Part shown: piece after piece, positions 6,908 to 32,147 of the stretch
Position numbering within the stretch: position 1 is the stretch's first letter
Layout: every line of letters starts with the position of its first letter
Source: Clostridiales bacterium
GTDB lineage: Bacteria; Bacillota; Clostridia; Lachnospirales; Lachnospiraceae
Reading direction: 5' to 3'
NCBI GenBank assembly: GCA_021203005.1
Contig: JAJQCB010000192.1
Coordinates: 1-33,832 of the forward strand
Length of the DNA stretch: 33,832 bases
Position numbers and translations under genes: made by a program
The notes under the pieces: model-generated
The model's database searches: none
What the model was told of the DNA's origin: nothing
Seen by the model: only the letters and a program-made list of their open reading frames with translations

Positions 6908-9900
6908 CTATAGGGGCGGGTTATTCATAAACGGGGTCTCGCCCTCTAAGGAAGTACCCTCTGACAACGGATACCGGCTCTCATAGACCAGGAATCCCTG
7001 CCCATACTCGTCCTCCCGGTGCCGGGTAATAATCTCTTCCCGTTTCGCGGAAGCCATCTCCCCGATCAGATAAGCATACTGTATTTCAGCCCACTTGGCC
7101 ATGCCTTCGTAGATCAGGAGCTCATTGTTCCGCCCATACGTACTCTGGATCTCTTTTTTATCCCAGTTTAAGTACTGCCAGATATGTGTCAGTTCATGCG
7201 CCATCGTCATGGCGGAGCTGATCCGCGGCGAACCGTTCTCCACAAGCAGCGAATATCCTTCCCGGGAAGAAATCGCCACACCGAGGACTCTTCCGTCCGC
7301 GTTTCCGGTGGGAACGAAGGACTGTCCAAGCGCCCTGTGGAGCCTCTTCGCATTAACCATTCTCACCTTCACCGGCACATTCAGCTTAATGCCATAATAG
7401 GACTGCATGGAGTTTATCACTGTCTTGTACAGCTCTACAAACTCCTCCTCCGTTTTGATGGCGGTCCGCCCGCAGGCCATACAGTGCTCCCTGCCGTCCT
7501 TGAGCACCTCATACTCGGTACCGGTCAGCGCCGCACCGCAGAAGTCACAGTAATGCTGTCCTTTCAGGTTCGGTTCAAACCCTTCCTCCATCAGTCTGGA
7601 GAGGATTTTGCCCTCCCGCGCCTGCTTCAGCTCGCTGTTGCCGTATCCTCTGTCGCGCAGGAAATCCAGTGTCTCCTCCGGCTGAATGCCCTCCGGTATC
7701 TGACTGCCGCCATAGAGCAGATAACGTCTCTCATGGTAAGGTTTCCGAAGCGGTATCAGAGATAACAGTTTTACAACCTTTGCCTGTTCTCCCTCAAACT
7801 CAAAATCAGAGCCCTCGCCGGCTTCCGGCGCCGTTCCATTCTCATCAGTTCCGTCAGCAGCCCCGTGTTGGGCACTCTCCGCCTCCGGCACAGCTCCGTC
7901 AGCATCCGTTTCCCGAGGAGCAGATTCTATCCCGGGAGTTTCCCCGGCGTCTCCAGCGCTATCCTCAGGCGCCCCTGCGGACAGATGAATCTCCGGCCCG
8001 GAGAAACTGAACGACATCTGCACTGCGGTGTCATCCTCATCATCCGCGCTGACTTCCGCCGCTCCGGTTTCCGTCGACTCTTCTGTATCCGCAGTTTCCG
8101 CCGGCTCTTCTGTATCCACAGCTCCCGCCGGCTCTTCCGCATCCGCAGGTTCGACAATCGCAGCAGTTTCTGTCGGCTCATCGGCCGCAACAGGCTCCGC
8201 CGGCGTTCCGGTCTCCACAGGCTCATCATCTTTGCCGCGATTCTTCTTTTTCTTTTTACGTCTGCCGAACAGTCCTTTTCCTCTGCCGAACAGTCCTTTT
8301 CTCTTCTTTTTCCCCTCCGGCTCCTCATCCGACGGCTCCGGAAGCTCCGCCGCTTTTTTCTCCGGCGCGGCAGGAGGATTCTCACTGTTCTTCACAGCCT
8401 CCAGCTCCCAGTCCAGATAATCGCAGAGGATAGAAAGAATCCGATCCAGATTTCTCTGGGCAGCCTCCAGCAGGCCGATATCCAGCTGACTGTCCTCGAT
8501 AATATAGATACAATTCTCGATCGGACAGCCATCAACCTGATAGGTCATCGGAACATCCTGCTCACCCGGCATAACCGCAGCGATAAAGCCCTGGTTTTCC
8601 GCAAACAGTGTCACAAAGAGCTCGTTCATCAGCACGGCGATCGTCCGGCAGATTTCCGCCGTCACTGGCTGAGATCCGTTTTCAAATCCGACCTTCATGA
8701 TTCGCTTATTATAGTAAACTCTGTCGGGAATGCCGTTGACATCCACGCGCTTCGCCGCGGCAAAATCGTTGTATCGATCCATCTTCCAGTACGCAGGCGT
8801 CTTCACGGAGACATCCGCATAACAGATGCTGACCTGAAGTCCGTCTCTTTTGCGCACATCGCCCATGATCTCAGACTCACGGATATGGTCCAGCCGATAC
8901 ATGCGAATCTGACGGTAGCTTTCCCGCCCTGTGATATGATCCGCAGCACGGCGCAGAATGACATTTCCGGCCGTGTTGACACGCAGCATCTCATAATACT
9001 TTCCGGCAATGGTAAAGAACTGCCCCGGCAAATGTCTCTGGTAAATCTGACCCAGAACCTCACTGCCAAGGAACTGATCTTTGCCCTGCTCATCCTCCGC
9101 GATGTACTCGACATTGCGGAGCGTATCCACATACAGGCGGATAAAAACCGGATTCTGTATGTAGAAACACGACTCCATCCGGCCGGTCCGAATGTTGTAT
9201 TTTCTCTTTTGGCGTATCACATTTTTATCAAACGTATACTCCCTGTCCTGTTCCGCGCAGGTCAGAACGTCTCCCTCAGCCCCGGTGCCAAACGCGTTCG
9301 TCCTCAGAATTTCATGCCACAGACTGGCCTGCAAATCAAGCACCGGAGCGTCAATCAGCTGCAGTTCCCGGCTCAGCTCCGACTCCCAGACCATGCCGAT
9401 TGCCATGCGCAGGCACAGACGAAGCACGACATTGCGCGCCGTGTGCGCATAGTCTGCCACCACATAGGGGATTGCCTTCGGATCCGCGTTGAAGATAGTG
9501 TCATTCTCCGTCATATAGTCTTTCATCAGATATTCCGTGGAAAGGATATTGACAAAGCCTTCGCGGGTCGTCCGGGTGGAAAAATCCCGTTTCATCTCAA
9601 ATACGTTAAACGACTCATCTTCCACGGTCATGTACTGAACCGACTGTTTTTTCGCGCCCCACATCTCAGGGCTCACATGAAACTTCGCTTTCAGCGTCTC
9701 CTGCTCGGTCGGCAGCGATGCGTATTCCAGCAGGTCATAGTAATACTGACCCGCGATCCAGCCCACATCTGTCACAGGAAATGCCTCGCCTCCATACCAG
9801 TATGTCTCATTGACCTGGTTTTTCAGAGCCGCCACAGACAGCTCCGTACCAAATCCCAGATATCGCGACAGGTTCGGCAGCATCCGGTGCTGCAGGTGAT

Positions 9901-11485
9901 CGCTGTCCGCATCCCAGCACATATAGGAAGAAATTCCCTCATGGTGATCGGTCGCGGAGACCTCTGTCAGGCTCACCATCAGCACATGGGACAGCGCATC
10001 CAGCAGACCGTCGCAGTTTCTGTCAATGGAGCAGAACACCGGCTTTTCCTCATTCGTGCTGCAGTAACGGACCAGGGAATTCAAACCGATCTGTGCCGTC
10101 GCCAGAAGGCGGGACGGTTCGATCAGAATCATCATTCCCACTTCCGACAGGAAGTCGGCATTGTTCTCGTGCAGCTTAATGTCATGAACCATGGACCGGG
10201 TCAGAATACCAACATCCGGCTTTTCCTCCTCATCGGAATATACCCTCCCGATCACACCGACACGCCACAGGGACGGCGTATTATTGATGGAGACCAGACC
10301 TTCCCGGCACCATGCTTCCATTTCCTTCTCAATCCCGTGTCTTCCCAGAACGATCAGCACCTTTTTATGCTTCAGCATCACGCGGTTCATGGGATAAAAG
10401 AGGTAGGGAATCAGGTCATAGTAAAACGGATTGTTAAAGAGAATACTCTTTCCCTCCAGCATATCCTTTCCGGCGCTCACATATTTGTGATCCAGCTTCA
10501 GTCCCATGGCATGGCTGTGCGCAAGGAAATGACCATAGGACTCAATCATCACTGAATCATCCTCTTCCAGCTCACCCAGCACTTCCCGGTTGGTTCTGAA
10601 ATTAACCAGTCCATTGTTGATTGTGGTGCTGTCCGCGCTTAGCTTATCCGGGAACAGCTTCCGCAATACGTCTTTCATCAGGAAATAATTTACCTGATGG
10701 CGGGCTCTCTCATCCTCACCCTCCAGATCCTGTAAATCCTCCTGTCTGGTCCGGCCGCCCAGAATATACGCGACTTCCCCCACCAGGATAATTGCAACGA
10801 CCGGAGACATCGGCTGCTGCAGCAGATCCGCATGATAAAGACCAACGGACAAAAGCGCCAGCAGCGACAGGGTAAATACCGCCGTAAAATTGAATACCTT
10901 TAAAAGAGTTCGTGCCTGACAGCAGTTTTTCCGCAGATAGCTTAAGCCCGTCTCCTCATTTTTCTCATAAAAAGGCGCCTGGAGCATCTCCGCAAACGGC
11001 CGGCTCCCGCTCATGACTTTCTTCATGATCCTGATCAGTATTCCCTTTAAGATCATAAAAAGCACAAGGAATCCGATATTTTCCACATAATAAAGCAAAA
11101 GCAGGATATCCATATTGCGGATAAGGTCAATCACCCTTGCTATGAGATCCGCTATCTTTGTCAGGAAACCGGAAAGCACCTCGTTCTGTGCTGTTTCCGC
11201 GGTTTCCAGAAGGAACATCTTAAGCGCCCCCGGGTTCAGATGCAGTGTCCTCAGCAGATTCAGGAAAGTGTGCATCAGATTCAGCACCAGTTCGTTGCTG
11301 ACGACAATGACTACCGCAGCGGCAATCCCGTAGGCCAGCGCAATAAAAGGCATCAGAATCTGCCGGTTGCGGTATTCCTTTTTCAGATTCACCTTCATCG
11401 CCAGCAGACAAAGCACAATAAAAGTAATACATTGCGGGAGACATGTTCTCATATACTGGAGCACTTCACTCATCACTTCAGTCAT
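6908..11485 (-). CDS. Giant membrane protein with C-terminal zinc ribbon and DA1-like HEXXH metalloprotease domain
   Basis: The 1525-residue protein has about five membrane helices at the N-terminus (roughly 15-33, 43-66, 126-151, 198-216, 226-244). A large unrecognised soluble region follows (about 250-1030). Residues 1035-1230 form a low-complexity linker: first basic with a GLFGRGKGLFGRR repeat, then rich in Glu/Ala/Pro/Thr. The C-terminus has a four-cysteine ribbon (C1313, C1316, C1335, C1338) and a glutamate-zincin motif HELTH (1430-1434) with a candidate third ligand Glu1460 in YEGMAKW. Zinc ribbon plus this peptidase arrangement recalls plant DA1-type LIM peptidases. The ATG overlaps the preceding gene's TGA (ATGACTGA) with GGGAGGAG upstream, so the two are translationally coupled. 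Likely a membrane-anchored protease of the vWA-tubulin assembly; substrate unknown. Confidence 0.8.
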   Translation of the reverse strand: MTEVMSEVLQYMRTCLPQCITFIVLCLLAMKVNLKKEYRNRQILMPFIALAYGIAAAVVIVVSNELVLNLMHTFLNLLRTLHLNPGALKMFLLETAETAQNEVLSGFLTKIADLIARVIDLIRNMDILLLLYYVENIGFLVLFMILKGILIRIMKKVMSGSRPFAEMLQAPFYEKNEETGLSYLRKNCCQARTLLKVFNFTAVFTLSLLALLSVGLYHADLLQQPMSPVVAIILVGEVAYILGGRTRQEDLQDLEGEDERARHQVNYFLMKDVLRKLFPDKLSADSTTINNGLVNFRTNREVLGELEEDDSVMIESYGHFLAHSHAMGLKLDHKYVSAGKDMLEGKSILFNNPFYYDLIPYLFYPMNRVMLKHKKVLIVLGRHGIEKEMEAWCREGLVSINNTPSLWRVGVIGRVYSDEEEKPDVGILTRSMVHDIKLHENNADFLSEVGMMILIEPSRLLATAQIGLNSLVRYCSTNEEKPVFCSIDRNCDGLLDALSHVLMVSLTEVSATDHHEGISSYMCWDADSDHLQHRMLPNLSRYLGFGTELSVAALKNQVNETYWYGGEAFPVTDVGWIAGQYYYDLLEYASLPTEQETLKAKFHVSPEMWGAKKQSVQYMTVEDESFNVFEMKRDFSTRTTREGFVNILSTEYLMKDYMTENDTIFNADPKAIPYVVADYAHTARNVVLRLCLRMAIGMVWESELSRELQLIDAPVLDLQASLWHEILRTNAFGTGAEGDVLTCAEQDREYTFDKNVIRQKRKYNIRTGRMESCFYIQNPVFIRLYVDTLRNVEYIAEDEQGKDQFLGSEVLGQIYQRHLPGQFFTIAGKYYEMLRVNTAGNVILRRAADHITGRESYRQIRMYRLDHIRESEIMGDVRKRDGLQVSICYADVSVKTPAYWKMDRYNDFAAAKRVDVNGIPDRVYYNKRIMKVGFENGSQPVTAEICRTIAVLMNELFVTLFAENQGFIAAVMPGEQDVPMTYQVDGCPIENCIYIIEDSQLDIGLLEAAQRNLDRILSILCDYLDWELEAVKNSENPPAAPEKKAAELPEPSDEEPEGKKKRKGLFGRGKGLFGRRKKKKKNRGKDDEPVETGTPAEPVAADEPTETAAIVEPADAEEPAGAVDTEEPAETADTEESTETGAAEVSADDEDDTAVQMSFSFSGPEIHLSAGAPEDSAGDAGETPGIESAPRETDADGAVPEAESAQHGAADGTDENGTAPEAGEGSDFEFEGEQAKVVKLLSLIPLRKPYHERRYLLYGGSQIPEGIQPEETLDFLRDRGYGNSELKQAREGKILSRLMEEGFEPNLKGQHYCDFCGAALTGTEYEVLKDGREHCMACGRTAIKTEEEFVELYKTVINSMQSYYGIKLNVPVKVRMVNAKRLHRALGQSFVPTGNADGRVLGVAISSREGYSLLVENGSPRISSAMTMAHELTHIWQYLNWDKKEIQSTYGRNNELLIYEGMAKWAEIQYAYLIGEMASAKREEIITRHREDEYGQGFLVYESRYPLSEGTSLEGETPFMNNPPL

Positions 11486-12797
11486 ACAGCTCCTCCCTTC
11501 TCAATCCCAGGCTCCGGATAATTCCATAAGGAATCTCCACATAATTGCCGCGCTCCAGAAACTCAATTCGCGTCTGCATCTCCGGCGCTTTCGGAAGCGG
11601 ATAACTGTAATCTTTCGCGAGATTGAAATTAAAATCATACGGCGTTTCCTGACAATTCGGCAGATCATCCTCGTCCCGGTTCAGAAACCTTCCGAACAGA
11701 TCATAAATGATCGCCTGCTGCTCATCCATGTCCGCCACATGCTTCTGGAGTATCCTGATCTGGTGGACGTCCCCATCCTTATGTTTCTCAAAGTAAGAGA
11801 GAACGGATATTCCGCGCATCATATTGCAGGCATGCCCAAGGTAGACCGAATGCTGCTTTACATCATTTTCAATCTGACCCAGGATCGACCGCATGGTAGT
11901 ATTATAATCCTTCACCCTGCTCACCAGCTGCCAGCGCAGCACAAACAGACAGATCATCCCTGCCGCGAACAGTGTCACCAAAGCCGCAAGCAGCAGAATC
12001 ACAGTCGGCGGAAGCGGCAAATCCCACTCCTCCCCTGTCCGATTCTGCAAAAAGACAGGAAGCATCCCGACAAAGACCAGAGCCAGGCAGAGCACTCCCC
12101 AGAAAATGGTGACTTTTTTTCGCATACGCCGCTCCAGAACATCCTGGACGCCGCGCTGTTTGTCTTCCATCTGCTTATAATAGCGCTGAACGTCGTAGAT
12201 GTTCCCGGTGCGGGTTTCCACCATCTCCCGTTCTTCTACCCCGACATGTTCCTTTACATCTTCCACCTGGAATTCATTCAGGACAGCGGCGCGGTCTTCC
12301 GACAGGACATTCATCCGCCGGAACGTATCCGTCGCCTGTTTAATTGCCCGTGCCGGCTGCTTCACCAGTTTTTTTATCGCCTTTCGGTTTTTCAGATAGC
12401 TGCCCGTCCAGACCATTTCCTCATCATCCTCCGGGCAATCATACGCCAACCCGAACCGGTCGTTACAGTACAGTGTTTCCGGGTCAAAGCGCTCCCGAAG
12501 GTTGATCGGTATGCTGATATTGGCGCAGAAAATCTGTTCCGCCTGTTCGTCTGTCAGCCGCTTCACCTGCCTGCCGCGGATATCACTGATTTTTACCTGA
12601 AGCTCCGCTTTCGTCGCCGCCAGTTTCGCGTTATATTTGCCAAGCAGCAGCGCCATTTTCTCTTCATCCGCATCACACTGCAGCTCATACACCCGGTTCG
12701 GCTGCAGGCAGCCGCCGGGTACGGGATTCCCCGCAAGCAAAATCACCCCGAGCAAAACCGGATGTAATCGCTCCTGTAATTCTGCTTTTTTTGTCAT
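11478..12797 (-). CDS. Two-TM protein, C-terminal part of a gene split by a +1 frame change
   Basis: Read from the ATG at the frame junction, this is a 439-residue protein. It contains a charged helical region (about 45-230), two membrane helices (about 230-250 and 264-288) and a helical cytoplasmic tail. It has no recognised domain. The upstream partner (12685-13608) overlaps it in another frame, and the sensible reading passes from one to the other at an A7 run. No clear Shine-Dalgarno site precedes the internal ATG, so this is probably the second half of one roughly 710-residue protein rather than an independent gene. It is coupled to the following 1525-residue membrane protease by an 8-bp stop-start overlap. 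Position in the vWA-tubulin operon suggests a membrane adaptor. Confidence 0.65.
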   Translation of the reverse strand: MTKKAELQERLHPVLLGVILLAGNPVPGGCLQPNRVYELQCDADEEKMALLLGKYNAKLAATKAELQVKISDIRGRQVKRLTDEQAEQIFCANISIPINLRERFDPETLYCNDRFGLAYDCPEDDEEMVWTGSYLKNRKAIKKLVKQPARAIKQATDTFRRMNVLSEDRAAVLNEFQVEDVKEHVGVEEREMVETRTGNIYDVQRYYKQMEDKQRGVQDVLERRMRKKVTIFWGVLCLALVFVGMLPVFLQNRTGEEWDLPLPPTVILLLAALVTLFAAGMICLFVLRWQLVSRVKDYNTTMRSILGQIENDVKQHSVYLGHACNMMRGISVLSYFEKHKDGDVHQIRILQKHVADMDEQQAIIYDLFGRFLNRDEDDLPNCQETPYDFNFNLAKDYSYPLPKAPEMQTRIEFLERGNYVEIPYGIIRSLGLRREELYD

Positions 12798-13608
12798 CCA
12801 TATCAAAAACCAGATAACGCATTCTGTCATAGTACAGATTCCAGTCATAAAACCTGCTGTATTCCCGCTCATCATGGTCTGTCCAGACACATTGCAGCGC
12901 ATAATCCATATCGTCGTGATGACGCTTCGCGATGCACAGGACTTCCCGGGGAGCGGTGTAGGACAGAGGCTCATCTCCACGGATCTCATCCCGGATCTGC
13001 TGCTTATACAGGGCACATTCTCTGTATTCCCGATACTCGAGGTAATCTAATGTATCCCTGTAACTGAAGGAGCCGCGGATCAGTTCCTTTCCTTCCTGCT
13101 CTCCTGCGCTGTCGTCCGCATCGAATTTTTCGTTCTTCCGCCTGACGTCAGCCTCGGCCTCACGGCGCATTTTTCTGACTGCCGCGTCCTCATCGCCGTC
13201 GCCGCGCTTTCTCACAACAGGATCCTCGCAGAGTCTCGTCACCAGCCGGACCAGCGGCTCATCCGCCGCCAGCTTATAGGCCGCCTTGTGCGCTGCCATC
13301 CGTCTGTCATAAAAATCCTCCATGGACTCGCTGCCGTCCTCATCCCATTCCGGCGCCGCATACTCCACAATATTAAACGGGTTCTTTTTCTTCAGTCCCC
13401 TCTCATCACAGAGAATGACCGCTCTCCACTCTTCCCTATGAGCGACCTCTCTCTCCAGATCCGGGACGGATTTTTTCATAGAATCTCTCTCCTCAGGATT
13501 CCATGGGCAGAAAGCAAACTGGGTTTTCTTCATGAATGGCTCTAAAAACAGACGATATTCACGGATATTGTCAATATGTTCCTGTTCCGCAATTATGACT
13601 GTATACAA
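12685..13608 (-). CDS. N-terminal part of the split operon protein (TTG start)
   Basis: The start is TTG: GGAGG lies seven bases upstream, and the protein begins YTVIIAEQEHIDNI, a good first strand. The region is alpha/beta-like at the N-terminus (VIIAEQEHI, QFAFCPW, WRAVILCDERG) and then very charged and helical, about 307 codons in all. It is not a family I recognise. Coding character holds up to DMDDKK at the A7 tract; the last 33 codons after it look like an out-of-frame tail over the partner's reading frame. It lies 97 bp after the tubulin-like gene, with an intercistronic hairpin between. It is either a frameshifted gene, an assembly error, or a slippage-controlled product. Confidence 0.6.
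   Translation of the reverse strand: MYTVIIAEQEHIDNIREYRLFLEPFMKKTQFAFCPWNPEERDSMKKSVPDLEREVAHREEWRAVILCDERGLKKKNPFNIVEYAAPEWDEDGSESMEDFYDRRMAAHKAAYKLAADEPLVRLVTRLCEDPVVRKRGDGDEDAAVRKMRREAEADVRRKNEKFDADDSAGEQEGKELIRGSFSYRDTLDYLEYREYRECALYKQQIRDEIRGDEPLSYTAPREVLCIAKRHHDDMDYALQCVWTDHDEREYSRFYDWNLYYDRMRYLVFDMDDKKSRITGAITSGFARGDFACGESRTRRLPAAEPGV
12786..12792 (-). other. A7 homopolymer at the frame junction
   Basis: The minus strand reads GAC-AAAAAAA-GCAG. With six A residues the two reading frames would join seamlessly as DDKKAELQER, so one extra A explains the +1 break. Confidence 0.75.
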
Positions 13609-13630
13609 CTGCACACCTCCATTCCGCTCA

Positions 13631-13680
13631 GCAGCTGCTCGATGCGTATGCAACGCATTGCTCCGCACGTTCACAGCTGC
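13631..13680 (-). other. Two-tier intercistronic hairpin after the tubulin-like gene
   Basis: An outer stem GCAGCTG/CAGCTGC (13631-13637 with 13674-13680) encloses an inner stem ATGCGT/ACGCAT (13642-13647 with 13653-13658). It lies between the tubulin-like stop and the TTG of the next gene. No T tract follows, so a stability or processing role is more likely than termination. Confidence 0.5.
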
Positions 13681-13705: not shown

Positions 13706-16700
13706 CTACTTAATCAATGCTTTCATATTATCCAGCAGCGTATTGTAGTCATCCGGTTCCGGTGTGGAGCTGATCACGTGGCGGATCTTACGGAAAATTG
13801 TATCAATCACCATATTATCAGACGCCGCTTTTCCGAGTTTCAGCTCATCAAACTTCTCATAATTTTCCATCAGCAGTCCAAACTGGCTCTGGAGAATATC
13901 ACAGAGAAGGAACGGCGCGTCATCTGCACTCTCCGCACTCGTCAGCTCATCTTCAAAGGTTTGAATCACAGCCTCTACCAGACCGGAGATCTCACCGGTA
14001 AAGCGGCGGCTGTTCGGAAGACTGTTGTAGTAGGCCAGCGGAATCTCAAAGAGGCTGGCTTTCCCCTCATGAATGCTCTTCAGCCGGAAGCCATCCACAG
14101 CCATGGCAAAGAGGGTCGCCTCATAGTTGGAATTGCGGACCTGATCTCTCTCCTTTTTGCTTCTGCAGATCACACCGATGTCCTCCACCACGGAAGCATC
14201 AATGTAAAGGGCATCCAGAATCTCATAGAACTCGTCGCAAAGCGTGCCGTTGGAAACAATCAGATCCTGCGTACGCTCTTCGGAATTCTCATAGCGGAAA
14301 ACCTTCTTACCGCCGGCTGCGGAGGACAGGTTCTTCTGCTGGATTGCGCCGTAAAGGAGCGCGTAAATCAGAGACTGATGAATCTTCATCATCTGTCCGC
14401 TCATAAACTTAAAATCAATCTCCGGCATAAATGCGATGGAATCCCATCTCTTATCAATATGAGTGGAAATCATCATATTCTTTGTGGAATCCGGTCCGAG
14501 ATGCTTCGCATATTCCATGTATGCATTATGGTAAAGACCCACATTCTTCACTCTCGTCTCTGTCGTCGCCGGAGAAGCAAACTTGTTCAGCTTATCCGGG
14601 GTCAGATTGTACAGCGCAATAAAGAAATGCATCTCGTATTTACTGATCGTATCGCAGGCTTCCGAACCGACGCCCTTGGCAAACATCTCACTCATACGGT
14701 AGTTGCGCATAGAATCCAGGGACCGGTTATAAGCCACGCACTTCACTTCTCTGGGCTCCTCATTACGGATTCTCTGGATGCCGGGCGCAGCCAGCCGCTC
14801 GCCCATCGCCAACGCACTCTTAATATGGCGCAGCGTATCTTCGCTGGACACGCGGTCCACGACCTGCTTGTCGGCACCCTGCTCCTCTCTGGTCTTGATA
14901 CGGGCTTTCAGCCTGTACTCAAGAGCAAGCGCTTCCACGATATTGACGTCCAGGCTGTCGCACTGTTCGCGGACACTCTTCTTGAAATATCCGAGAACGA
15001 TATCATCAAAAACATCAATCCGCTTATCCTCTTCCACAATATCCGCGAAACGAATCTCCCGCTCAAACGCCACATTTGCCTTAATCGCGTCATAAATCGC
15101 GCCGTTTAATTCATCATCCAGCATCGCGCCGTCCGCACTCTGCCTGGAAGTCGCGCGGCTGAGCTCATCCATGACTTCCTTCTCGGAGCAGATATTGACC
15201 ACGGAGTCGCCCTTGACGAACTTCAGCTCATCCACAAGGTCGTCTCTCTTTCTGAGCAGAGCGGATACCTTATCCGGGAAGCTTGCGAAGAATTTCTCAT
15301 ACATCTCGCAGGCCTCTTTGACAAATTCGAAGCCTTTCTTATAAGCTTCCAGCTCCGCCGCCAGCTCACTGTACTCTTTGATCAGCGCGAAGTAATCCGG
15401 GAAATATTCATTTAAAAGAGTATAAATCTTGTCCTGTCCGCCGATTTTTTCCAGAAGCTTCGGATGCTTTTTCTGATTTGCTTCCGCATCGCAGAGTTCA
15501 TCAATGCTGACTTCTCTCTTTTTCCGGGTAGATTTTACGTCAAACCGGGCGGGATCATTGGCTTCCGCGGAATATCCGTACAATCCTTCGCCGGCCTCTT
15601 CCATCTTTGTCTGCGTGGAGCGGATGCGCTTTTCAAACTCATCTTTCGCCAGATAAAGCACATAACGCGCCGCAACCGGATGTGCAATCTCATCGTATGT
15701 ATTCTTCAGAAGCGCTTCGATCGTGTACGGCCGTTTCTCATTAATGGTCTTTGTCTCATTTTCAAAAATGGCTTCTGCTTCACTCTCCGCCGCTTTCTTC
15801 GCGTTCATCCGCACCGCAGCCTCGTAGTCGCGCAGCAGACCGAGGTTCTCGGTCGCTTTCTTCTTATTCTCCTCTTCCTTGTAATCAATCTCGTCCGAAA
15901 GTTCATTTGCCAGACCGGAGGTCGCCTTGATCACGGAGTTGTTTGCCACGCTGCCGTGCATATGTGTCTGCAGCTCACGGAAAAACTTATTGACGCTCTT
16001 GTTGACGCCCACCATAAACTTCGACCGGATATCCTTGGAGAAAGAATCAGACGCGGAATTCAACGTGCTGACATAAACCTCGCCGAGCTTCGGCGCCTCC
16101 GAAGCCGAGAGCCCTTTCTTTCTGGCCTCCGCCTGTTTTACCTGGAACGCCTTGTCATACCGTCCCCACTTGCCGGCATCTTTCTCGCCGCCGATATTGT
16201 CAAGCGCCCAGCCGTACGCCACATAATCCGCCAGCTGCTCGTAGGGGTAGCGCAGCACGCTGGATCCGATTCCGCCGAAGCGGTTGCGCCCCACATTGCC
16301 CGGGTTTGACATTTCCTTGATAATATTATCCTCAACAGAAAATGCTTTTTTCTGCATCGGTCCGATGTTCTGCTCATACAGTGCCTGCGCCGCCTGCTTC
16401 TTATACTGGCTCAGACTGATCATTGTGGAATCCTCCGCATCCTGTCCGTCCATGAGGAAGCAGAAATCCATCGGCAGAAGCGCCAGTGACTTTGTGCCGC
16501 CGCCCGGCATCGTATAATCCACACGCATATTGTCATAACGCTTCAGATCCTCGTCGATATCAAAGAAACCGGAGCCTTTCATCATAAAGGCATTGATTTC
16601 CTTGATGGTTGCGTAAGCGTTTCTTCTCTGGCTCTCCCGCTCCTGTGTGGAGCTGATGACACTGTCTAACGTCTCAGGAAGCATGATCAGGGAACGGACA

Positions 16701-17269
16701 ATCAGCGCCGTGTTCGGATACTTGTTCTTCACATAATCGCGTATAAACATGCTTAAGGGAAGGATAATACCGGATCCGGTTCCGCCGGAAGCTGTGGAAG
16801 CAATTACCACACGGAGCGCCTGCTTCATATCCTGTCCGTTTTTGCGGAACAGATCGTCCACCGCGGCGTACAGCGGATTGATCTGGCCGGTCTTGATGGT
16901 CGCGTTGAACGCCAGTCTGGAAATCGCTCTCACCTGGCCCGCGCCCTCAGATACGGTCTTGTCATACATCACCGCGTTTTTCGGGAACCAGTTGCGCCGC
17001 GCATCGTCGTCATAATCCAGATAATCGCCGACGGTCTGCGTATTGGACGTCTGGACATAGTAAATATTGGCCTTGCTCTTCTGCACGGAAAGCAGGTCAT
17101 TCACATTCGTATCCAGGCAGACAAAACTGATATTCTCCTTCTCCTCCGGGCGGCACATTTCCGCCACGCGTCTGACAATCTCAGAACCGGTTCCGCCGAC
17201 ACCGATGAAAATAGTGGGTGCGCCGACTGTGTTGGGTTTGATGTTCTCTTTTTTCATAGCTTCCTTCAT
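13706..17269 (-). CDS. Large tubulin/FtsZ-like GTPase (Tubulin_2-type)
   Basis: The 1187-residue protein starts with a Rossmann-type strand and GVGGTGSE (23-30). The tubulin-superfamily phosphate-binding signature STASGGTGSGI (158-168) corresponds to the FtsZ GGGTGTG loop. Early residues CLDTNVND may contact nucleotide. Beyond about 400 residues the protein is mostly charged helices, far longer than FtsZ. Such divergent tubulin-like proteins occur in bacterial operons with vWA proteins and have been proposed from comparative genomics to act in membrane remodelling; whether this one polymerises is unknown. Two starts are possible: the first ATG sits directly on an AGGAGG, and an ATG four codons later has AAGGAA upstream. 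It lies between the vWA receptor-like gene and the membrane adaptor, suggesting one complex. Confidence 0.88.
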   Translation of the reverse strand: MKEAMKKENIKPNTVGAPTIFIGVGGTGSEIVRRVAEMCRPEEKENISFVCLDTNVNDLLSVQKSKANIYYVQTSNTQTVGDYLDYDDDARRNWFPKNAVMYDKTVSEGAGQVRAISRLAFNATIKTGQINPLYAAVDDLFRKNGQDMKQALRVVIASTASGGTGSGIILPLSMFIRDYVKNKYPNTALIVRSLIMLPETLDSVISSTQERESQRRNAYATIKEINAFMMKGSGFFDIDEDLKRYDNMRVDYTMPGGGTKSLALLPMDFCFLMDGQDAEDSTMISLSQYKKQAAQALYEQNIGPMQKKAFSVEDNIIKEMSNPGNVGRNRFGGIGSSVLRYPYEQLADYVAYGWALDNIGGEKDAGKWGRYDKAFQVKQAEARKKGLSASEAPKLGEVYVSTLNSASDSFSKDIRSKFMVGVNKSVNKFFRELQTHMHGSVANNSVIKATSGLANELSDEIDYKEEENKKKATENLGLLRDYEAAVRMNAKKAAESEAEAIFENETKTINEKRPYTIEALLKNTYDEIAHPVAARYVLYLAKDEFEKRIRSTQTKMEEAGEGLYGYSAEANDPARFDVKSTRKKREVSIDELCDAEANQKKHPKLLEKIGGQDKIYTLLNEYFPDYFALIKEYSELAAELEAYKKGFEFVKEACEMYEKFFASFPDKVSALLRKRDDLVDELKFVKGDSVVNICSEKEVMDELSRATSRQSADGAMLDDELNGAIYDAIKANVAFEREIRFADIVEEDKRIDVFDDIVLGYFKKSVREQCDSLDVNIVEALALEYRLKARIKTREEQGADKQVVDRVSSEDTLRHIKSALAMGERLAAPGIQRIRNEEPREVKCVAYNRSLDSMRNYRMSEMFAKGVGSEACDTISKYEMHFFIALYNLTPDKLNKFASPATTETRVKNVGLYHNAYMEYAKHLGPDSTKNMMISTHIDKRWDSIAFMPEIDFKFMSGQMMKIHQSLIYALLYGAIQQKNLSSAAGGKKVFRYENSEERTQDLIVSNGTLCDEFYEILDALYIDASVVEDIGVICRSKKERDQVRNSNYEATLFAMAVDGFRLKSIHEGKASLFEIPLAYYNSLPNSRRFTGEISGLVEAVIQTFEDELTSAESADDAPFLLCDILQSQFGLLMENYEKFDELKLGKAASDNMVIDTIFRKIRHVISSTPEPDDYNTLLDNMKALIK

Positions 17270-20040: not shown

Positions 20041-20089
20041 TTGTGATCTCCCCTCTGTGCGCCGCCTTTCCGAGCGCAATCATAAAAAT

Positions 20090-20119
20090 ATTATAAACTA
20101 TAGTAAAATATACTGTCAA
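20090..20119 (-). promoter_or_regulatory. Proximal promoter of the vWA-tubulin operon
   Basis: TTGACA (20114-20119) and TATAAT (20090-20095) on the minus strand are 18 bp apart in a very AT-rich stretch, giving a leader of about 40 nt. Confidence 0.75.
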
Positions 20120-25436: not shown

Positions 25437-27506
25437 CTAAGGCCGTCGGATATACTCCTCCAGCTTCTCATCAATTCCTTCCTGACTCATGTATGCCCGT
25501 ATCTTATCCAGTGATTCCGCGCGCAGCAAGTGCTTTTGAACCACATATCCATCCTTATATGTGCAGGAAATATCCAGCACATATTCTGCAGTCGTTTTTT
25601 TCAGGAAGTGTTTTTTCACTTCATAATACAGATCTACACTGATGCGCACACCCTTCTGAGAATTTCTTCTCTCCGTATTGATCAAATGCTTATTTTCCGT
25701 CTGATTCCACTTTGCAGGCAGACGCTCCATTGCCTGCAAAAAACGAACTGACAGGCTGTTCTTCCTCCTCGTTTCCTCTTCCGCCCGAATCGCGTTACGC
25801 ACGTTATTCAGGTTATTACTGTAAGAAGGAACATTCGGGCACTGTCTGACCAGACGGTCCCAGATAGCCTCCGCTTTCTTAAGCAGCGGCAAATCCATCT
25901 TTTCAGAAAGAACAATGGCATTCCACAGGCAGGAGGTTGCCAGCCCGTCTAGGACATCCGTCGTCTCCGCCTCCGATGCCAGACGTTCCCACTCCCGCAT
26001 TCCTTCCGGAAACCACTTCCGGGCGCCGTCAGAATCTTTATTATTAAAACACAGATTTCCCATGCGGTCATAAGCGCGTGCCAGGCTGAGGCGTGCCTGC
26101 CTCGTTCCGGTTTCCTCCAACAGTTGTCTGCTCAGCGTCACCATTTTTTCAAAAAGAGCTCTCGCTTCGTCGGTCTTCCCTTCCTCGTTTAAGACCAATC
26201 CCAGACTATTATAACAGGTAATAAGATCCGTACGGGCTTTTACCGTACCGGTCTCCTCCGCCAGAGTTTCCAACTGTTCCCGTGCCTTTTCATACCAGGA
26301 TCGTGCGGCAGGCAGATCACTCTGCAGTAAAAAAGTATTGCCCATATTCTGGTAAGTAGCTCCCATCAGCTGCCTGGCTTGCACTGATCCGCTCTCCCTG
26401 ACAAGTTGTTCTCTAAGCTGTATCGACTTCTTATACCAGCTTTGCGCTTCCTGCAGATTTCCTTCCGCCTGACACAACTTTCCCATCCTGTCATAACTAT
26501 AGGAAAGATCCGTTCGTGCTTTAAATGTACCGGTTTCCTCAGCCAACGCTGTCGACAGAGTCAGATTTTGCTCATATCGCCTGCGGGCTTCCTGCAGATT
26601 CCCTTCCGCGTAGTAAACATCCGCCAGACGTTCATAGCTGATGCAAAGTTCTCTGCGTGCCTCTACTGAACAAAGTCCTTCCGCCAGAATTTCCTGTTTC
26701 TCAATCGCTTTCCTGTACCATTCTTTCGCCTCAGTAAGCTTTCCCTGTGCCTCGCTGATACCTCCCGTCTGAACATAACTCAGACTCAGATTTTGATAAT
26801 CCTCTGTGCTTCCTGTCTCTTTTACAAGCTGTTCATATAACTCCATCGATTTTCGGAACCACTCCATTGCCTGATCCAGGTTCCCCTCATTCCTGCATAA
26901 CAGTCCCATTCTCGCATAACTGGCAGGAACCTCGCGGCGATACAGAGGCGTATCAATCTCGCGAGCCATTTTCTCCACCACTGGCATTCGTTTTTCATGC
27001 CAGATGCGGGCTTTTTTCAAATCCCCCTGTGCCATGTAGAAGTCACCCAGTCTCTCACAATCAACGGAAAAAGGCTGATTGTCTTTTACAAGCCCCGTCT
27101 CGCGTGCAATCGTTTCAGACGCATGCGCTGTTTTTTCAAAATACTCTCCGGCTTTCGCCACATCACCAAGTTCAAGGCAGAGATCTCCCATCCGGTTACA
27201 GCAGACAGACAAAAACCATTGATTCAGGTATTTATCAGACTTCGGCGCGATCTTCTGTGCCACAGCCTCCATCCTTTTATAGGATTCTCCCGCTCGTTCC
27301 AGCTGTCCCAGCCTGATCCGGGCATCCCCTGCATTCCACAGAGCAATAAACAATTCTTTGCCTGCCTCTCCGCTTCCGGATTTTTTAAATTGCCGTTCCC
27401 GATCATCCGCAAGCTTTTCCAGCCACTGTGCAGACATCTCATAATCCCGCTCTACGCCGTCACCGGACTCATACATCTGCGAAAGCTTCTCCATCGCCTC
27501 CGGCAA
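25437..27506 (-). CDS. TPR-like repeat protein, probable C-terminal part of a TIR-TPR protein
   Basis: The 689-residue reading begins with a Sel1-like repeat (LPEAMEKLSQMYESGDGVERDY). About ten tandem TPR-like repeats with a 47-residue period follow, each having a helix pair with G-N-L-Q-E-A-type turn residues and a linker such as EETGT-KARTDL. The C-terminal 150 residues are non-repetitive and end in KLEEYIRRP. TPR arrays bind protein partners or act as sensors. The 38-bp overlap with the TIR frame, the +1 offset and the poor start (TTG at the listed position, or ATG four codons later) suggest that TIR and TPR were one protein. The gene is followed by the channel gene after a 190-bp gap holding the 37-bp repeat. 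Confidence 0.75.
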   Translation of the reverse strand: MPEAMEKLSQMYESGDGVERDYEMSAQWLEKLADDRERQFKKSGSGEAGKELFIALWNAGDARIRLGQLERAGESYKRMEAVAQKIAPKSDKYLNQWFLSVCCNRMGDLCLELGDVAKAGEYFEKTAHASETIARETGLVKDNQPFSVDCERLGDFYMAQGDLKKARIWHEKRMPVVEKMAREIDTPLYRREVPASYARMGLLCRNEGNLDQAMEWFRKSMELYEQLVKETGSTEDYQNLSLSYVQTGGISEAQGKLTEAKEWYRKAIEKQEILAEGLCSVEARRELCISYERLADVYYAEGNLQEARRRYEQNLTLSTALAEETGTFKARTDLSYSYDRMGKLCQAEGNLQEAQSWYKKSIQLREQLVRESGSVQARQLMGATYQNMGNTFLLQSDLPAARSWYEKAREQLETLAEETGTVKARTDLITCYNSLGLVLNEEGKTDEARALFEKMVTLSRQLLEETGTRQARLSLARAYDRMGNLCFNNKDSDGARKWFPEGMREWERLASEAETTDVLDGLATSCLWNAIVLSEKMDLPLLKKAEAIWDRLVRQCPNVPSYSNNLNNVRNAIRAEEETRRKNSLSVRFLQAMERLPAKWNQTENKHLINTERRNSQKGVRISVDLYYEVKKHFLKKTTAEYVLDISCTYKDGYVVQKHLLRAESLDKIRAYMSQEGIDEKLEEYIRRP

Positions 27507-27879
27507 GTCCGCATTCGCCGCAGTTTCGGTTAAAATCGCTCTCCAACCCGCTCTCCTGCATCAGAGGCAACACAGGGATATGATGTTCCATAGCAAAACG
27601 AAAGAGGATCTCGTGGGCACTGTTTTTCTCATATAAAAATCTGGCCGTAACCGGTATCACAAACAGCTGCACCCGGCTAAGTTCCAGTTCCAGATCTTCC
27701 GCCGTCCAGCTGTTTCCCGGATCGCAGTCATACCAGATTACGCAGTTCTGCGTCTTAAAAATCTCTCCGCAGACCGCGTCAAAATATGGTTCCATATCCT
27801 TCGGGTGGCACGTAAAAAAGACGCGCTCCTTTCCCTGCGGACTGCTGTTTCCTCTTGTTTTGTAAGCTAATTTTGCCAT
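27469..27879 (-). CDS. TIR-domain protein (truncated by frame change before the TPR region)
   Basis: The 136-residue product has a TIR_2-like fold: strand RVFFTCHPKD (19-28), IWYDCDP (48-54), LELSRVQLFVIPVT (65-78), helix SAHEILFRFAMEH (87-99) and strand IPVLPLM (101-107). Glu90 is placed like the catalytic glutamate of NAD-hydrolysing TIR domains. Such domains cleave NAD+ and can release cyclic ADP-ribose variants. After FNRNCG the frame turns low quality and ends with TGA. The next protein in +1 frame is TPR-rich, so a single TIR-TPR protein is likely, disrupted or read by frameshift. A GGGAGG site precedes the ATG; a promoter with the shared box is upstream. Confidence 0.8.
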   Translation of the reverse strand: MAKLAYKTRGNSSPQGKERVFFTCHPKDMEPYFDAVCGEIFKTQNCVIWYDCDPGNSWTAEDLELELSRVQLFVIPVTARFLYEKNSAHEILFRFAMEHHIPVLPLMQESGLESDFNRNCGECGLAGGDGEAFADV

Positions 27880-28260: not shown

Positions 28261-30111
28261 TCAGTCGTCATCCTTAATCTTCTCCGACTCCGGCAGATCC
28301 TCAAACGGGATCAGAAGATGATGGAGCTTTGCCATATCATTTCTCTCGGGCGCATAGCGATATCCGATCGACCGCATATAAGCATTCCACCCGGCATGCT
28401 CCACCTTCTGTATGGCACGGCGTTCCTCCTCTGTCCTCTGACCCGGCGCCTTGTCCGTCCCGGGCACATGCATCTCGCGGCGCACTCTGGAACGAATCGC
28501 ACTGGCCATGGAGGACTGCCGGAAATATTCATGCTGATAGAAACGTCTGGACTCCTTTCGAAGCTGTTCCTCATAATCCGCAGACGATTTGTCCACCCAC
28601 TTCAGGTGGCGCGTCTTTGCCTCCGCCTCCAGGCTATCCTGCAGTATCACATCGTAGGACCAGGTCGTTTCCATATCTCCGATAAAACCGATGTTATACC
28701 CTTTCCCTTTGAAATCCTGCATCGGATACTTTTTCACAATTTCTGATTTTTTCGCGTCAAACACCACCGCCTCAATCACCGGCTGCGGTTCCTCTGTGAC
28801 AGACTGTGTAAACAGACGGCGCAGCTTCACAGCAATGCGGATGTTTGCCGCATCATCGCCCAGAGTCAGATATGCGATGGAGACATGATGCAACTCCGCA
28901 ATCTGCCGGTCAAAATCAGAGGTATCCGCATCGATTCCCCACCCGCCGGCCGTATGATGAAAATAAATATCAAAATGGCTTTCCCCATCGATATCTTTAT
29001 GGTTCATTTCCATCGTTTCCGGGCAAAGGGAAGCAAATCTCTGTTCCGCCAGATGATCCCGCTCAAACACATGGATCTCCGTCCGTATCCCCGGCAGCTG
29101 CGTGTACCAGGTAAGCGCCCGCAAAAGCTCTGTCCCGTACTGCCCCATACCGACCAGGACAATGGTAAGCACCCGTTCCCCATCGGGAAGCGTACGGGCA
29201 AGATCAAAGAGGCGATGATTTTCCGTATCAAACAAATAGGAATACACCATGGACTGCGCGCTGTTTATCCGCTTCACTTCCATCCGGATGTCCGTGTTCA
29301 TAGCGGAGCCGACCAGAAGTTCCCCCTCCTCTGAATTCGTAACGACATGGAGAGAGATGCGGTCACACTGCCCATACCGTTCCGTCAGAGTCAAAGCGTG
29401 TCTGATATTCTCTGTCTCATCAGAACCCATGATAAAAAAGCGGACTTTTGTCTTTTTCCTGGAAAAATCCACATTCAAAGTCAGAATATCCGATTTCAGG
29501 CAGATGGCTCCCAGATTCTTTGCCCAACTGATGACCTCCGCGGATTCCTCTTCATCTTTCTCATATACATCTGTGAAGACAAGCAGGCTTCCTTTCTTAC
29601 CTGCCCTGTCATGCTCCGCACAGCTCCGGGCCAGAACCAGAGACCGCTCGTTCAACTCTGAGAATATGTATATGTTTTTGAATTTTACGGTCTTAAGCTT
29701 CGCGTAATCCAGTATGCTCTGAAAAAAGGAGACGACCACTCCGACCAGGAGTATCGGCGCCAGCACATAGAGGATGCCTCCGAAAATCCGGTAGGCGCCA
29801 CGCAGCGCCGCGGGCAGAGACGCCACGCTCTCATACAAATCCAGATACTCCCCGTCCAGGCTGAAGACCTGCAGGGAAATCCGGATCGTCTGAAAAAATG
29901 TCTGGAGGTCAACGGCCCGGGAGCCGATGAAAAGCTCCCTGCACAGGGGAAGAATCAGCAGAAAAAGGGAAAAGAAAGTTACACCAAGGAACAGGGTAAC
30001 CAAAGACAAAGCCCGCCGGCTGCGCCTGTTCCTCCTGTAAGACAGATATCCTCCGATATTACACACTGCAAAGATCAAAAGTGCCAGTACAAAACAAATC
30101 GCCCACATCAT
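28261..30111 (-). CDS. Membrane protein with two Rossmann (TrkA-N/RCK-like) domains and a C-terminal RyR domain
   Basis: The 616-residue protein (numbering from a TTG two codons earlier) has three membrane helices (about 5-24, 37-60, 112-134). A first Rossmann-type domain starts at KNIYIFSELNERSLVLA (147-163) and a second has the nucleotide-binding loop VLVGMGQYGTELL (320-332). The C-terminus (573-618: HAGWNAYMRSIGYRY, HHLLIPFEDLPESEK) matches bacterial RyR repeats. Comparative genomics has suggested that bacterial RyR domains sense NAD-derived nucleotides, such as those made by TIR enzymes, and a TIR gene follows here. GGGGAG lies nine bases before the chosen ATG. The architecture parallels the CASTOR/POLLUX-like channel in the same island. 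A terminator follows; an HD remnant precedes it by 63 bp. Confidence 0.82.
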   Translation of the reverse strand: MMWAICFVLALLIFAVCNIGGYLSYRRNRRSRRALSLVTLFLGVTFFSLFLLILPLCRELFIGSRAVDLQTFFQTIRISLQVFSLDGEYLDLYESVASLPAALRGAYRIFGGILYVLAPILLVGVVVSFFQSILDYAKLKTVKFKNIYIFSELNERSLVLARSCAEHDRAGKKGSLLVFTDVYEKDEEESAEVISWAKNLGAICLKSDILTLNVDFSRKKTKVRFFIMGSDETENIRHALTLTERYGQCDRISLHVVTNSEEGELLVGSAMNTDIRMEVKRINSAQSMVYSYLFDTENHRLFDLARTLPDGERVLTIVLVGMGQYGTELLRALTWYTQLPGIRTEIHVFERDHLAEQRFASLCPETMEMNHKDIDGESHFDIYFHHTAGGWGIDADTSDFDRQIAELHHVSIAYLTLGDDAANIRIAVKLRRLFTQSVTEEPQPVIEAVVFDAKKSEIVKKYPMQDFKGKGYNIGFIGDMETTWSYDVILQDSLEAEAKTRHLKWVDKSSADYEEQLRKESRRFYQHEYFRQSSMASAIRSRVRREMHVPGTDKAPGQRTEEERRAIQKVEHAGWNAYMRSIGYRYAPERNDMAKLHHLLIPFEDLPESEKIKDDD

Positions 30112-30174
30112 ATACAAGTACTCCCCTTTTCACATGATTTTTCAAACACTCCCACCGCACGTTTCCTGAGGCGT

Positions 30175-31351: not shown

Positions 31352-32147
31352 GTGCACACCACCTTTTCCATATCATCTCCCAGATTTTATCCAGCAGATT
31401 ACCGGGCAGTATACCGTCCAGCCCCTCCAGAAGTACAGCCTTATCCTGCAAGCGCAGCGAGTGTAACTTTGGCCTGGCATCCACGGGAATCAGACGAAGG
31501 TTATCCTGAACCGACCGGGATCCGATGAAAGTATTCGTCAACCTGTCCTCCATCACATCAAAAACAGCAACCGCATCATCTGTCAGACATTGAAACAACA
31601 AAGACAGACCGTGGTCAAACAGCGGAGTCAATCGCATCGTTTTCTTTCGGCTGTTTCGCAGCACCTCAATATTCGCTCCATGCCGGTCACGATTCAAAAT
31701 AAGAAAATCTACCACAAACATTTGATAAATATACTCAGACCAGCCATTCCTGATACAAAAATCCAACGGCGTTTCACCTTCCAGGCGCTCGCTCTCATAA
31801 TAGACATCCAGGGCGATTTTGCTCTCTCCACGCTGCTTAAAATCCTCCGAGGCACAAAGGTATACCTCTTGCACTTTGCCACCCAGCATTACATCCGCAT
31901 GAATCAGCTGATAATGTAAATGCTCGATTCCCAGAAGTTCCAGCAGCCGGTCAACAATCAGTTCATTAACACATTCATGTCCGATAACGCCTCTGACGCT
32001 GTCATAATTCGACAGCTTATAATATATTTTTTTCCCACCCAGTTCCGAATAAGCTTTCAAAAAGGATCCTGCTGTCCCGGAGGAGCGGCGTATCCTGGAC
32101 CATGTCAGGTATGTCAGATCCTGTTTTTCAGTAATCAGCCCACCCAT
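31326..32147 (-). CDS. HipA-like serine/threonine kinase
   Basis: The 273-residue protein has a glycine/serine P-loop-like segment (RSSGTAGSFLKA, 21-32), a Lys44 in YYKL, the catalytic loop NRDRHGAN (152-159) and the metal-binding DHG (178-180) of the HipA_C fold. HipA kinases phosphorylate host targets such as glutamyl-tRNA synthetase and can halt growth; this short form lacks the N-terminal subdomain, parts of which may be in the partner protein. The ATG is preceded by GAGGGTGAG. A clear promoter with an 11-bp palindrome lies 63 bp upstream, suggesting autoregulation. It is transcribed with the overlapping HTH gene. Whether it is a toxin, a defence kinase or a housekeeping relative is inference. 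Confidence 0.8.
   Translation of the reverse strand: MGGLITEKQDLTYLTWSRIRRSSGTAGSFLKAYSELGGKKIYYKLSNYDSVRGVIGHECVNELIVDRLLELLGIEHLHYQLIHADVMLGGKVQEVYLCASEDFKQRGESKIALDVYYESERLEGETPLDFCIRNGWSEYIYQMFVVDFLILNRDRHGANIEVLRNSRKKTMRLTPLFDHGLSLLFQCLTDDAVAVFDVMEDRLTNTFIGSRSVQDNLRLIPVDARPKLHSLRLQDKAVLLEGLDGILPGNLLDKIWEMIWKRWCAHEDFCHKG

What the first reader, a model, noticed from the sequence alone, without database searches (positions are those of the whole stretch)
6908..32147. A 25-kb single-strand island combining TIR, RyR, CASTOR/POLLUX-like channel, KAP-methyltransferase, vWA, tubulin-like and DA1-like protease genes
All large genes here point the same way and carry domains typical of signalling or conflict systems: an NAD-processing TIR candidate, two membrane proteins with double Rossmann/RCK-type modules (one with RyR), a KAP NTPase, and a vWA-tubulin-protease membrane set. 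I do not recognise this combination as a described system. The working model is that TIR makes a nucleotide messenger that RyR/RCK proteins sense, with the tubulin-vWA assembly acting at the membrane. Domains are seen; the joint function is inference.
Basis: partly seen in the sequence, partly recalled or inferred. Interest (0 to 1): 0.9.

Follow-up and report, generated by a model that had tools for sequence, protein, structure and literature searches.

The report
RyR–CASTOR channel genes beside tubulin machine
A bacterial genome carries a conserved six-gene membrane system that pairs a relative of plant calcium channels and an animal-type ryanodine-receptor domain with a tubulin-like protein, and several related genomes place an immune-type TIR gene beside it; its function has not been tested.

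Summary
The genes are there, all on the minus strand, but the 25 kb are not one unit. Six genes form a conserved core: a RyR-domain RCK membrane protein (Ry), a CASTOR/DMI1-type channel (CAS), vWA, Tubulin_2, an unnamed two-TM protein X, and a multi-TM zincin. They lie as one run in two relatives. The nine nearest genomes found with CAS all carry Tubulin_2; three more distant ones have CAS alone. KAP-methyltransferase, GNAT and HipA/HTH look like passengers. X is split between frames, and the TIR gene lacks the segment that Pfam recognises as TIR in relatives. The TIR–RyR link is supported elsewhere: TIR genes lie at 5 of the 9 islands (one damaged, one 2.2 kb away), and 8 of 29 RyR loci have a TIR gene within 500 bp. 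Ry keeps the four ligand residues reported for a cADPR-cleaving phage RyR protein, at identical spacing, and folds like CASTOR gating rings. CAS keeps the Asp-containing CASTOR-type filter. Best model: a NAD-derived signal gates a Ca2+-type channel coupled to a membrane tubulin–vWA–protease machine. The system is well supported; the mechanism is inference. Its core resembles FtsZl1–vWA operons: a new variant.

The parts
28261..30117 (-). Ry: 618-aa membrane protein; TM helices, short pore-helix-like element, two RCK Rossmann domains, C-terminal RyR half-domain (H574, W577, H599, D616)
23120..25246 (-). CAS: 708-aa CASTOR/DMI1-type channel, two TM, LDAG filter, two RCK domains (ORF extends to a TTG at 25474)
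   Evidence: PDB profile hits only CASTOR/DMI1; LDAG invariant in 8 of 8; TM
17377..20079 (-). vWA protein: N-terminal signal/TM, vWA with MIDAS (outside, inferred), one C-terminal TM, tail
   Evidence: orthologues
13706..17269 (-). Tubulin_2 (FtsZl1-type) protein with GGTGSG loop, 1187 aa
   Evidence: Pfam E 2.1e-53
11478..13674 (-). Gene X, interrupted: two overlapping ORFs in different frames (12685-13674 and 11478-13016); one gene with two C-terminal TM in relatives
6908..11485 (-). 1525-aa protein: five predicted N-terminal TM, long unassigned middle region, C4 zinc site, HExxH zincin (DA1-like motifs)
27469..27879 (-). TIR-like N-terminal fragment of an interrupted TIR-TPR gene (accessory, not core)
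   Evidence: 65% to first domain of C233 TIR-TIR-TPR; second TIR absent
25437..27506 (-). Sel1/TPR part of the same interrupted gene, other frame (accessory)
20842..22992 (-). KAP NTPase-methyltransferase fusion, passenger
   Evidence: 43% homologue beside a GNAT on another contig in G154
20269..20826 (-). GNAT acetyltransferase, passenger paired with KAP-methyltransferase
20090..20119 (-). 12-of-12 sigma-70-like promoter match just upstream of vWA (consensus match only)

Best explanation
Shown: a six-gene system (Ry, CAS, vWA, Tubulin_2, X, multi-TM zincin) that recurs as a run in relatives and is opened and reordered in this window by passenger genes. Inferred: Ry is an RCK-type channel subunit whose RyR domain binds an ADP-ribose-type signal made by TIR proteins. 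With the neighbouring CAS it forms a ligand-gated, probably Ca2+-permeable, conductance. Opening it changes ion levels at the membrane, where the vWA protein (outside), the tubulin-like GTPase (inside) and the membrane-bound X and zincin form a polymer/protease machine. The likely output is growth arrest or membrane remodelling on infection or envelope stress. In this genome the TIR gene inside the island is damaged, so the signal would come in trans.
For: Same six genes in one run, one strand: G283 (contig ends cut vWA and CAS) and G154. Same six near each other in own, G200 and G124. The nine nearest genomes found with CAS (own, G200, two of the family, five of the order) each have one Tubulin_2. 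CAS is on one contig with at least one core gene in 8 of 9; in G345 the contig starts at CAS. In 200 family genomes CAS is in 3 and Tubulin in 6 (two weak, partial), and all 3 CAS genomes are among the 6 (hypergeometric 1.5e-5 with own, 5e-4 without). TIR at 5 of 9 islands, with different architectures. TIR ORF within 500 bp of a RyR ORF in 8 of 29 RyR loci, window excluded (one of the 8, G154, is also an island); controls 23 stretches, 411.6 kb, one weak TIR hit. Ry has H574-W577-H599-D616, the spacing of RyDEP H75-W78-H100-D117 (PMC13232231 section 4); W577 and H599 are invariant, H574 is in 10 of 11. CAS LDAG invariant in 8 of 8; plant filter is AD(S/A)GNHA and D265N abolishes activity (PMC6697748 passages). 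Ry fold matches CASTOR/DMI1 gating rings best.
Against: CAS occurs alone in three class-level genomes (G580, G610, G794): no match to the window's Tubulin protein and no other system gene in the stretches read. The vWA-Tubulin-X-zincin block occurs without CAS in G021. G375 lacks Ry between zincin and CAS. Ry-like proteins without Tubulin_2 in G165, G089, G092. G159, the one other genome of the same genus shown in the family sample, has none of CAS, Ry, Tubulin, TIR or KAP-methyltransferase. G345 has no TIR in the 4.1 kb after CAS; G283, G368 and G375 end at contig ends. In G200 the TIR lies about 2.2 kb past the zincin with a conjugation gene between. G165 has Lys in place of the first His. 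The Ry loop is SLDG here and SLNG in G200, not a conserved filter. CAS and Ry profiles do not match each other significantly (E 0.09). None of Ry, CAS, vWA, Tubulin or zincin matches a PADLOC model at E up to 0.01. No function was tested.
Confidence: 0.45

Rival explanations
1. An envelope or Ca2+/turgor homeostasis system, not a defence system: the channel pair senses cytosolic Ca2+, nucleotides or NAD state, and the tubulin-vWA-zincin complex remodels the membrane. TIR genes are neighbours only because RyR domains sense NAD-derived metabolites in general.
For: FtsZl1-vWA operons were predicted to remodel membranes (PMC2875224). RyR domains also sit on K+ channels with a TVGYG or GYGD filter in 10 of 22 RyR proteins printed, including one in this genome. 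No PADLOC match for the core proteins scanned.
Against: TIR proteins of different architecture recur at the islands and immediately beside other RyR genes. Distribution is patchy, 3 of 200 family genomes for CAS.
Confidence: 0.3
2. Two independent systems side by side: a TIR/RyR/CASTOR signalling unit and an FtsZl1-vWA-zincin membrane unit that merely share a variable genomic slot.
For: Each half exists without the other: CAS alone in G794, G610, G580; core block without CAS in G021. A full-match promoter lies before vWA in the window. Gene order differs between loci.
Against: Single runs in G283 and G154, and Tubulin_2 in all nine nearest CAS genomes.
Confidence: 0.2
3. A chance gathering of unrelated defence-type genes in an island, as for KAP-methyltransferase and GNAT.
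For: KAP-methyltransferase, GNAT, HipA/HTH and TIR-TPR are not shared at these places; the slot between CAS and vWA in G200 holds unrelated genes such as RelB/PIN and a P-type ATPase.
Against: The six core genes recur in several genera and two families.
Confidence: 0.05

Closest known systems
FtsZl1-vWA operons (Makarova and Koonin 2010, PMC2875224, parts 1-2 of 5 read)
   Same: N-terminal FtsZ-like domain (Tubulin_2, residues 20-356) with GGTGSG loop and a long C-terminal part (its helical nature not tested here); adjacent membrane vWA protein with intact MIDAS; further membrane proteins
   Different: No P-loop GTPase, kinase or OmpA gene in the core; adds RyR-RCK protein, CASTOR-type channel and multi-TM zincin, none named in the parts read
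GAP1-N2 GTPase-centric conflict systems with tubulin and vWA (Kaur et al. 2020, PMC7159879, section 29 and passages read)
   Same: Tubulin-domain protein with long C-terminal part; membrane vWA protein with vWA placed outside (inferred from TM positions here)
   Different: No GTPase or GAP1 found by Pfam in the window; RyR, ryanodine, CASTOR and DA1 have zero occurrences in that paper's main text
Thoeris (passages in PMC13232231)
   Same: TIR gene beside a gene whose product carries a domain expected to bind cADPR-type signals (in relatives)
   Different: Sensor is RyR on an RCK channel-like protein rather than the effectors I recall (SLOG, Macro-TM, caspase; from no call); TIR in this window is broken; tubulin core added
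Plant CASTOR/POLLUX/DMI1 channels (PMC6697748, passages read)
   Same: Two RCK domains, Asp in a DAG/D(S/A)G filter, no TVGYG
   Different: Two TM rather than four; bacterial operon partner Ry with RyR domain

Membership tests
FtsZl1 (Tubulin_2) with vWA | Tubulin_2 domain with GTP-binding glycine loop | tested here: met
   PF13809 E 2.1e-53; GGTGSG
FtsZl1 (Tubulin_2) with vWA | Linked vWA protein with MIDAS | tested here: met
   DxSxS in 5 of 5; adjacency
FtsZl1 (Tubulin_2) with vWA | Frequent linked P-loop GTPase or OmpA-like protein (not universal) | tested here: not met
   No such Pfam hit in island proteins at E up to 0.1
GAP1-N2 tubulin conflict systems | GTPase with zinc ribbons | tested here: not met
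   No GTPase domain besides Tubulin
GAP1-N2 tubulin conflict systems | GAP1 protein | tested here: inconclusive
   No such hit, but whether Pfam holds a GAP1 model was not checked
Thoeris | Intact TIR that makes a cADPR signal | tested here: not met
   Window TIR gene lacks the TIR_2 segment and is interrupted; intact relatives exist in other loci
Thoeris | Effector activated by that signal | not testable with these tools
   Needs biochemistry
CASTOR/DMI1 channels | Two RCK domains in collinear order | tested here: met
   Collinear segments to 6o6j and 7vm8, E 3e-5; the fold of CAS itself failed
CASTOR/DMI1 channels | Filter with Asp, no TVGYG | tested here: met
   LDAG in 8 of 8
CASTOR/DMI1 channels | Four TM segments | tested here: not met
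   Two hydrophobic segments; the pore pair is present
RyR domain (PF02026) | Score over curated cut-off for the window protein | tested here: not met
   16.8 bits and 21.6 bits against 27.4
RyR domain (PF02026) | Significant family-profile match to solved RyR domains | tested here: met
   6.6e-22 (RyR1 chimera 6uhi), 2.5e-10 (putative ryanodine receptor 6uag)
RyR domain (PF02026) | Ligand residues H, W, H, D of RyDEP | tested here: met
   Exact spacing; residue numbers from PMC13232231 section 4; matched by spacing, not by a shown alignment to RyDEP
DA1 peptidase | Significant match to PF12315 | tested here: inconclusive
   E 0.15 for window, best 0.028, listed for 6 of 7 orthologues
DA1 peptidase | HExxH...E and preceding zinc site | tested here: met
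   Invariant in 7 of 7 aligned; motif positions

The most novel reading that the evidence does not exclude
A bacterial version of the cADPR-RyR-Ca2+ pathway: TIR enzymes make a cyclic ADP-ribose signal that binds the RyR domain of a CASTOR-fold channel subunit, opens a Ca2+-selective CASTOR-type pore, and thereby switches a tubulin-vWA-protease machine at the membrane.
Probability: 0.22. Interest if true: 0.93.

Novelty: new variant of a known kind. Interest (0 to 1): 0.72.

Why it matters
If true, it links three open questions in one testable operon: what FtsZl1-vWA systems do, what bacterial RyR domains sense, and whether bacteria use TIR-made signals to gate ion channels. RyR-TIR adjacency in other genomes gives smaller two-gene units in which the signalling step can be tested first.

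Tried and rejected
PADLOC scan of nine window proteins (X, HipA-like and GNAT not scanned): no match for Ry, TIR, CAS, vWA, Tubulin or zincin; KAP-methyltransferase matches PDC-S20, PifA and QatA models through the KAP part and mad2 through the methyltransferase part; the TPR protein matches a TPR model, and the DUF2442-HTH protein has weak matches. PADLOC scan of nine TIR proteins from RyR-linked loci and islands: only weak matches (E 1.5e-8 or worse outside TPR) to ThsB, SAVED-TIR and similar models. NCBIfam: nothing over a cut-off. Profile searches of gene X against PDB and Pfam, of the whole zincin protein and of its C-terminal part against PDB: nothing significant, so X and the long middle region of the zincin protein stay unassigned. 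CASTOR fold with two near-identical rows failed (pLDDT 39) and was not used. The idea that Ry is a sequence paralogue of CAS was tested by profile alignment and not significant; only the predicted fold supports it. KAP-methyltransferase as a component was rejected because its pair with GNAT lies on another contig in G154. A note of mine counted 11 K+-filter RyR proteins; the printed list gives 10 of 22.

Limits of the TIR statistics: the TIR profiles were built from TIRs at RyR-linked or island loci, so sensitivity leans toward such TIRs. The region-level comparison with controls is only p 0.034 (8 of 29 against 1 of 23); the Poisson figure of 3e-10 assumes the control TIR density. Controls were stretches I chose, not random draws: 16 from genomes that hold RyR and 7 others already fetched, two of which flank the C38 RyR locus. 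Several RyR loci are short because contigs end (for example 3.5 and 5.2 kb). The window's TIR is not counted in the 8.

Papers: PMC2875224 parts 1-2 of 5; PMC13232231 part 1 of the whole text, sections 4 and 5, and found passages; PMC7159879 found passages and section 29; PMC6697748 found passages. Others seen as search listings only. That no paper describes this combination rests on searches in an open-access library only; a 2015 survey of nucleotide-centred conflict systems that I recall was not among the listings.
Full report
WHAT IS THERE. The window is the whole contig C93 of a 3.83-Mb, 312-contig genome, 95% complete and 6.4% contaminated by estimate. From 32147 to 6908 all large genes run on the minus strand. 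In transcription order: HipA-like, DUF2442+HTH, Ry (RyR-RCK), TIR fragment, TPR, CAS (CASTOR-like), KAP-methyltransferase, GNAT, vWA, Tubulin_2, X (two ORFs), multi-TM zincin. Pfam supports KAP, methyltransferase, GNAT, TPR and Tubulin_2 strongly, vWA and RyR weakly, and TIR not at all. GC is even, 0.47 to 0.54, across the window. The window's Tubulin is 60% identical to that of G283 of another family but 27-29% to those of G124 and G154 of its own family, so the island may be transferred, or the contig mis-binned; this does not touch the gene-linkage argument.

TWO BROKEN GENES. X is split over two frames here; in G200, G124, G154, G021 and G283 it is one gene of 655-715 aa, with two TM segments near the C-terminus in the three checked. 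The TIR-TPR gene is also damaged. Its relative in the same genome, on contig C233, is a 955-aa TIR-TIR-Sel1-TPR protein. Pfam recognises only the second of the two TIR-like segments in C233, G035 and G154-C9, and that segment is absent from the window copy. Whether these are real mutations or assembly faults cannot be told.

A SIX-GENE CORE. In a sample of 200 genomes of the same family, CAS is in 3 (own, G124, G154), Ry in 6, Tubulin in 6, two of them weak and partial. In 295 genomes of the order CAS is in 6: own plus G283, G330, G345, G368, G375 of another family. A ninth genome, G200 (record title Clostridiales bacterium isolate MI.11_7), came. All nine carry one Tubulin_2 (which examined 14 genomes; of the other five, G021 and G201 have it and G165, G089, G092 do not). 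Gene order: G283 vWA-Tubulin-X-zincin-Ry-CAS in one run (contig ends cut vWA and CAS); G154 the same order, with about 0.6 kb between zincin and Ry; G330 and G368 zincin-Ry-CAS, contig ends beyond the zincin; G375 zincin-CAS without Ry; G345 contig starts at CAS; G124 CAS-vWA-Tubulin-X-zincin, then Ry about 9 kb further; G200 Ry-CAS, six other ORFs, then vWA-Tubulin-X-zincin at 73-82% identity. So the window and G200 share an order, opened by different passengers: KAP-methyltransferase and GNAT here; a CHAP protein, RelB/PIN, an AAA protein and a P-type ATPase in G200. G201 (an Oscillospiraceae record) has Ry on one contig and vWA-Tubulin on another; CAS was not sought there. The three CAS genomes among the six Tubulin genomes of 200 give p 1.5e-5, or 5e-4 leaving out the window's genome.

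LIMITS OF THE UNIT. CAS also exists alone: of 391 class-level genomes 4 have it, and the three besides own have no match to the window's Tubulin protein and no other system gene in the stretches read. G021 has the vWA-Tubulin-X-zincin block without CAS and no TIR in its 19.65-kb stretch. G165, G089 and G092 have Ry-like proteins without Tubulin_2. G159, of the window's genus, has none of the genes sought. CAS and Ry therefore look recruited to a vWA-Tubulin core, and the pair is usual but not obligatory.

THE RyR DOMAIN. A profile of the RyR region of seven Ry proteins hits solved RyR domains (6.6e-22 to the RyR1 chimera 6uhi, 2.5e-10 to the putative ryanodine receptor 6uag, 1.7e-6 to 35tm). 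The RyDEP preprint (PMC13232231, sections 4-5) shows that H75, W78, H100 and D117 of a phage RyR protein contact the cADPR-derived ligand, and that six of eight phage homologues tested bind 2'/3'cADPR. Ry has H574, W577, H599 and D616: identical spacing of 3, 22 and 17. Across 11 Ry proteins W577 and H599 are invariant, and H574 is in 10 (Lys in G165).

THE TIR LINK. At the nine islands a TIR gene is found at five: own (damaged), G124 (TIR-beta-propeller, 15 bp from Ry, plus a second TIR on the other strand), G330 (TIR with a PQQ/propeller-like part, 57 bp after CAS; TIR_2 5e-10, ThsB_TIR 5e-9), G154 (350-aa TIR protein after CAS and a solo RyR gene), G200 (TIR-Sel1, about 2.2 kb past the zincin with a conjugation gene between). 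G345 has none in 4.1 kb; G283, G368 and G375 cannot be judged. RyR was found at 33 places in 27 of 200 genomes. Leaving the window out, 32 places in 29 loci were examined; 8 loci have a TIR ORF within 500 bp of the RyR ORF (G176, G028, G058, G087, G178, G088, G035, G154). G154 is counted in both lists. Control stretches: 23, 411.6 kb, one weak hit (E 4e-5). G080, found through TIR, has a Ry-like gene next to it. G154-C9 is a TIR-TPR locus without a RyR place nearby. Ten of 22 RyR proteins printed are K+-channel-like with TVGYG or GYGD, including one on contig C38 of this genome and the TIR-adjacent one of G058. So RyR looks like a common sensory cap of RCK membrane proteins in this family, and TIR is one of its partners.

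THE TUBULIN SIDE. Makarova and Koonin predicted membrane remodelling for FtsZl1-vWA operons. Kaur et al. placed tubulin-vWA neighbourhoods among conflict systems built on GTPases; no GTPase was seen here. By a simple hydropathy scan vWA has an N-terminal and a late TM segment, X two, the zincin five (four in G154). The zincin's C4 site, HExxH and distal Glu are invariant in 7 of 7.

MECHANISM. Shown: gene content, conservation, domain identity, residue conservation, adjacency. Inferred: ligand, ion, coupling between channel and tubulin core, biological output. The best model is a TIR-signal-gated ion conductance coupled to a membrane polymer/protease machine, probably for defence or damage response. 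I put about 0.85 on the six genes being a real system, about 0.45 on RyR sensing an ADP-ribose-type signal and gating the channel pair, and about 0.3 on an anti-phage role.

Noticed in passing
G000:C233 (L007 2136-9814): Intact TIR-TIR-Sel1-TPR gene about 2 kb from a stand-alone 102-aa RyR gene in which the second ligand His reads Thr, followed by a BspA-type LRR protein.
   Followed up: partly
G000:C38 (L004 12676-14433): A TVGYG K+ channel with C-terminal RyR domain (weak, 18 bits) in the same genome; similar proteins are common in the family.
   Followed up: partly
L103, L106, L107, L122, L124, L125 (RyR and adjacent TIR genes): RyR gene followed by a TIR gene on the same strand in six genomes, 0 to 364 bp apart: a possible two-gene TIR-RyR unit of Thoeris type.
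   Followed up: partly
L072 12871-14532 and L104 9557-11260: Proteins of 553 and 567 aa without predicted TM and with a C-terminal RyR domain (weak HD hit in L072), each next to another RyR gene; near TIR-TPR in L072.
   Followed up: no
window 30536-32147: HipA-C-like gene (weak Pfam hit) overlapping a DUF2442-HTH gene; looks like an independent pair at the island's upstream end.
   Followed up: no
window 20269-22992 and L070 6915-9794: KAP-methyltransferase fusion with adjacent GNAT recurs as a pair in G154 on another contig; G143 and G151 match only the KAP part.
   Followed up: partly
L029 5361-9504: In G021 the zincin part appears to lie in a separate reading frame after the TM protein, as if the 1525-aa protein were two genes there.
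   Followed up: no
L056, L057, L059: CASTOR-type channel genes in three class-level genomes, without Tubulin match in the genome or RyR partner in the stretches read.
   Followed up: yes
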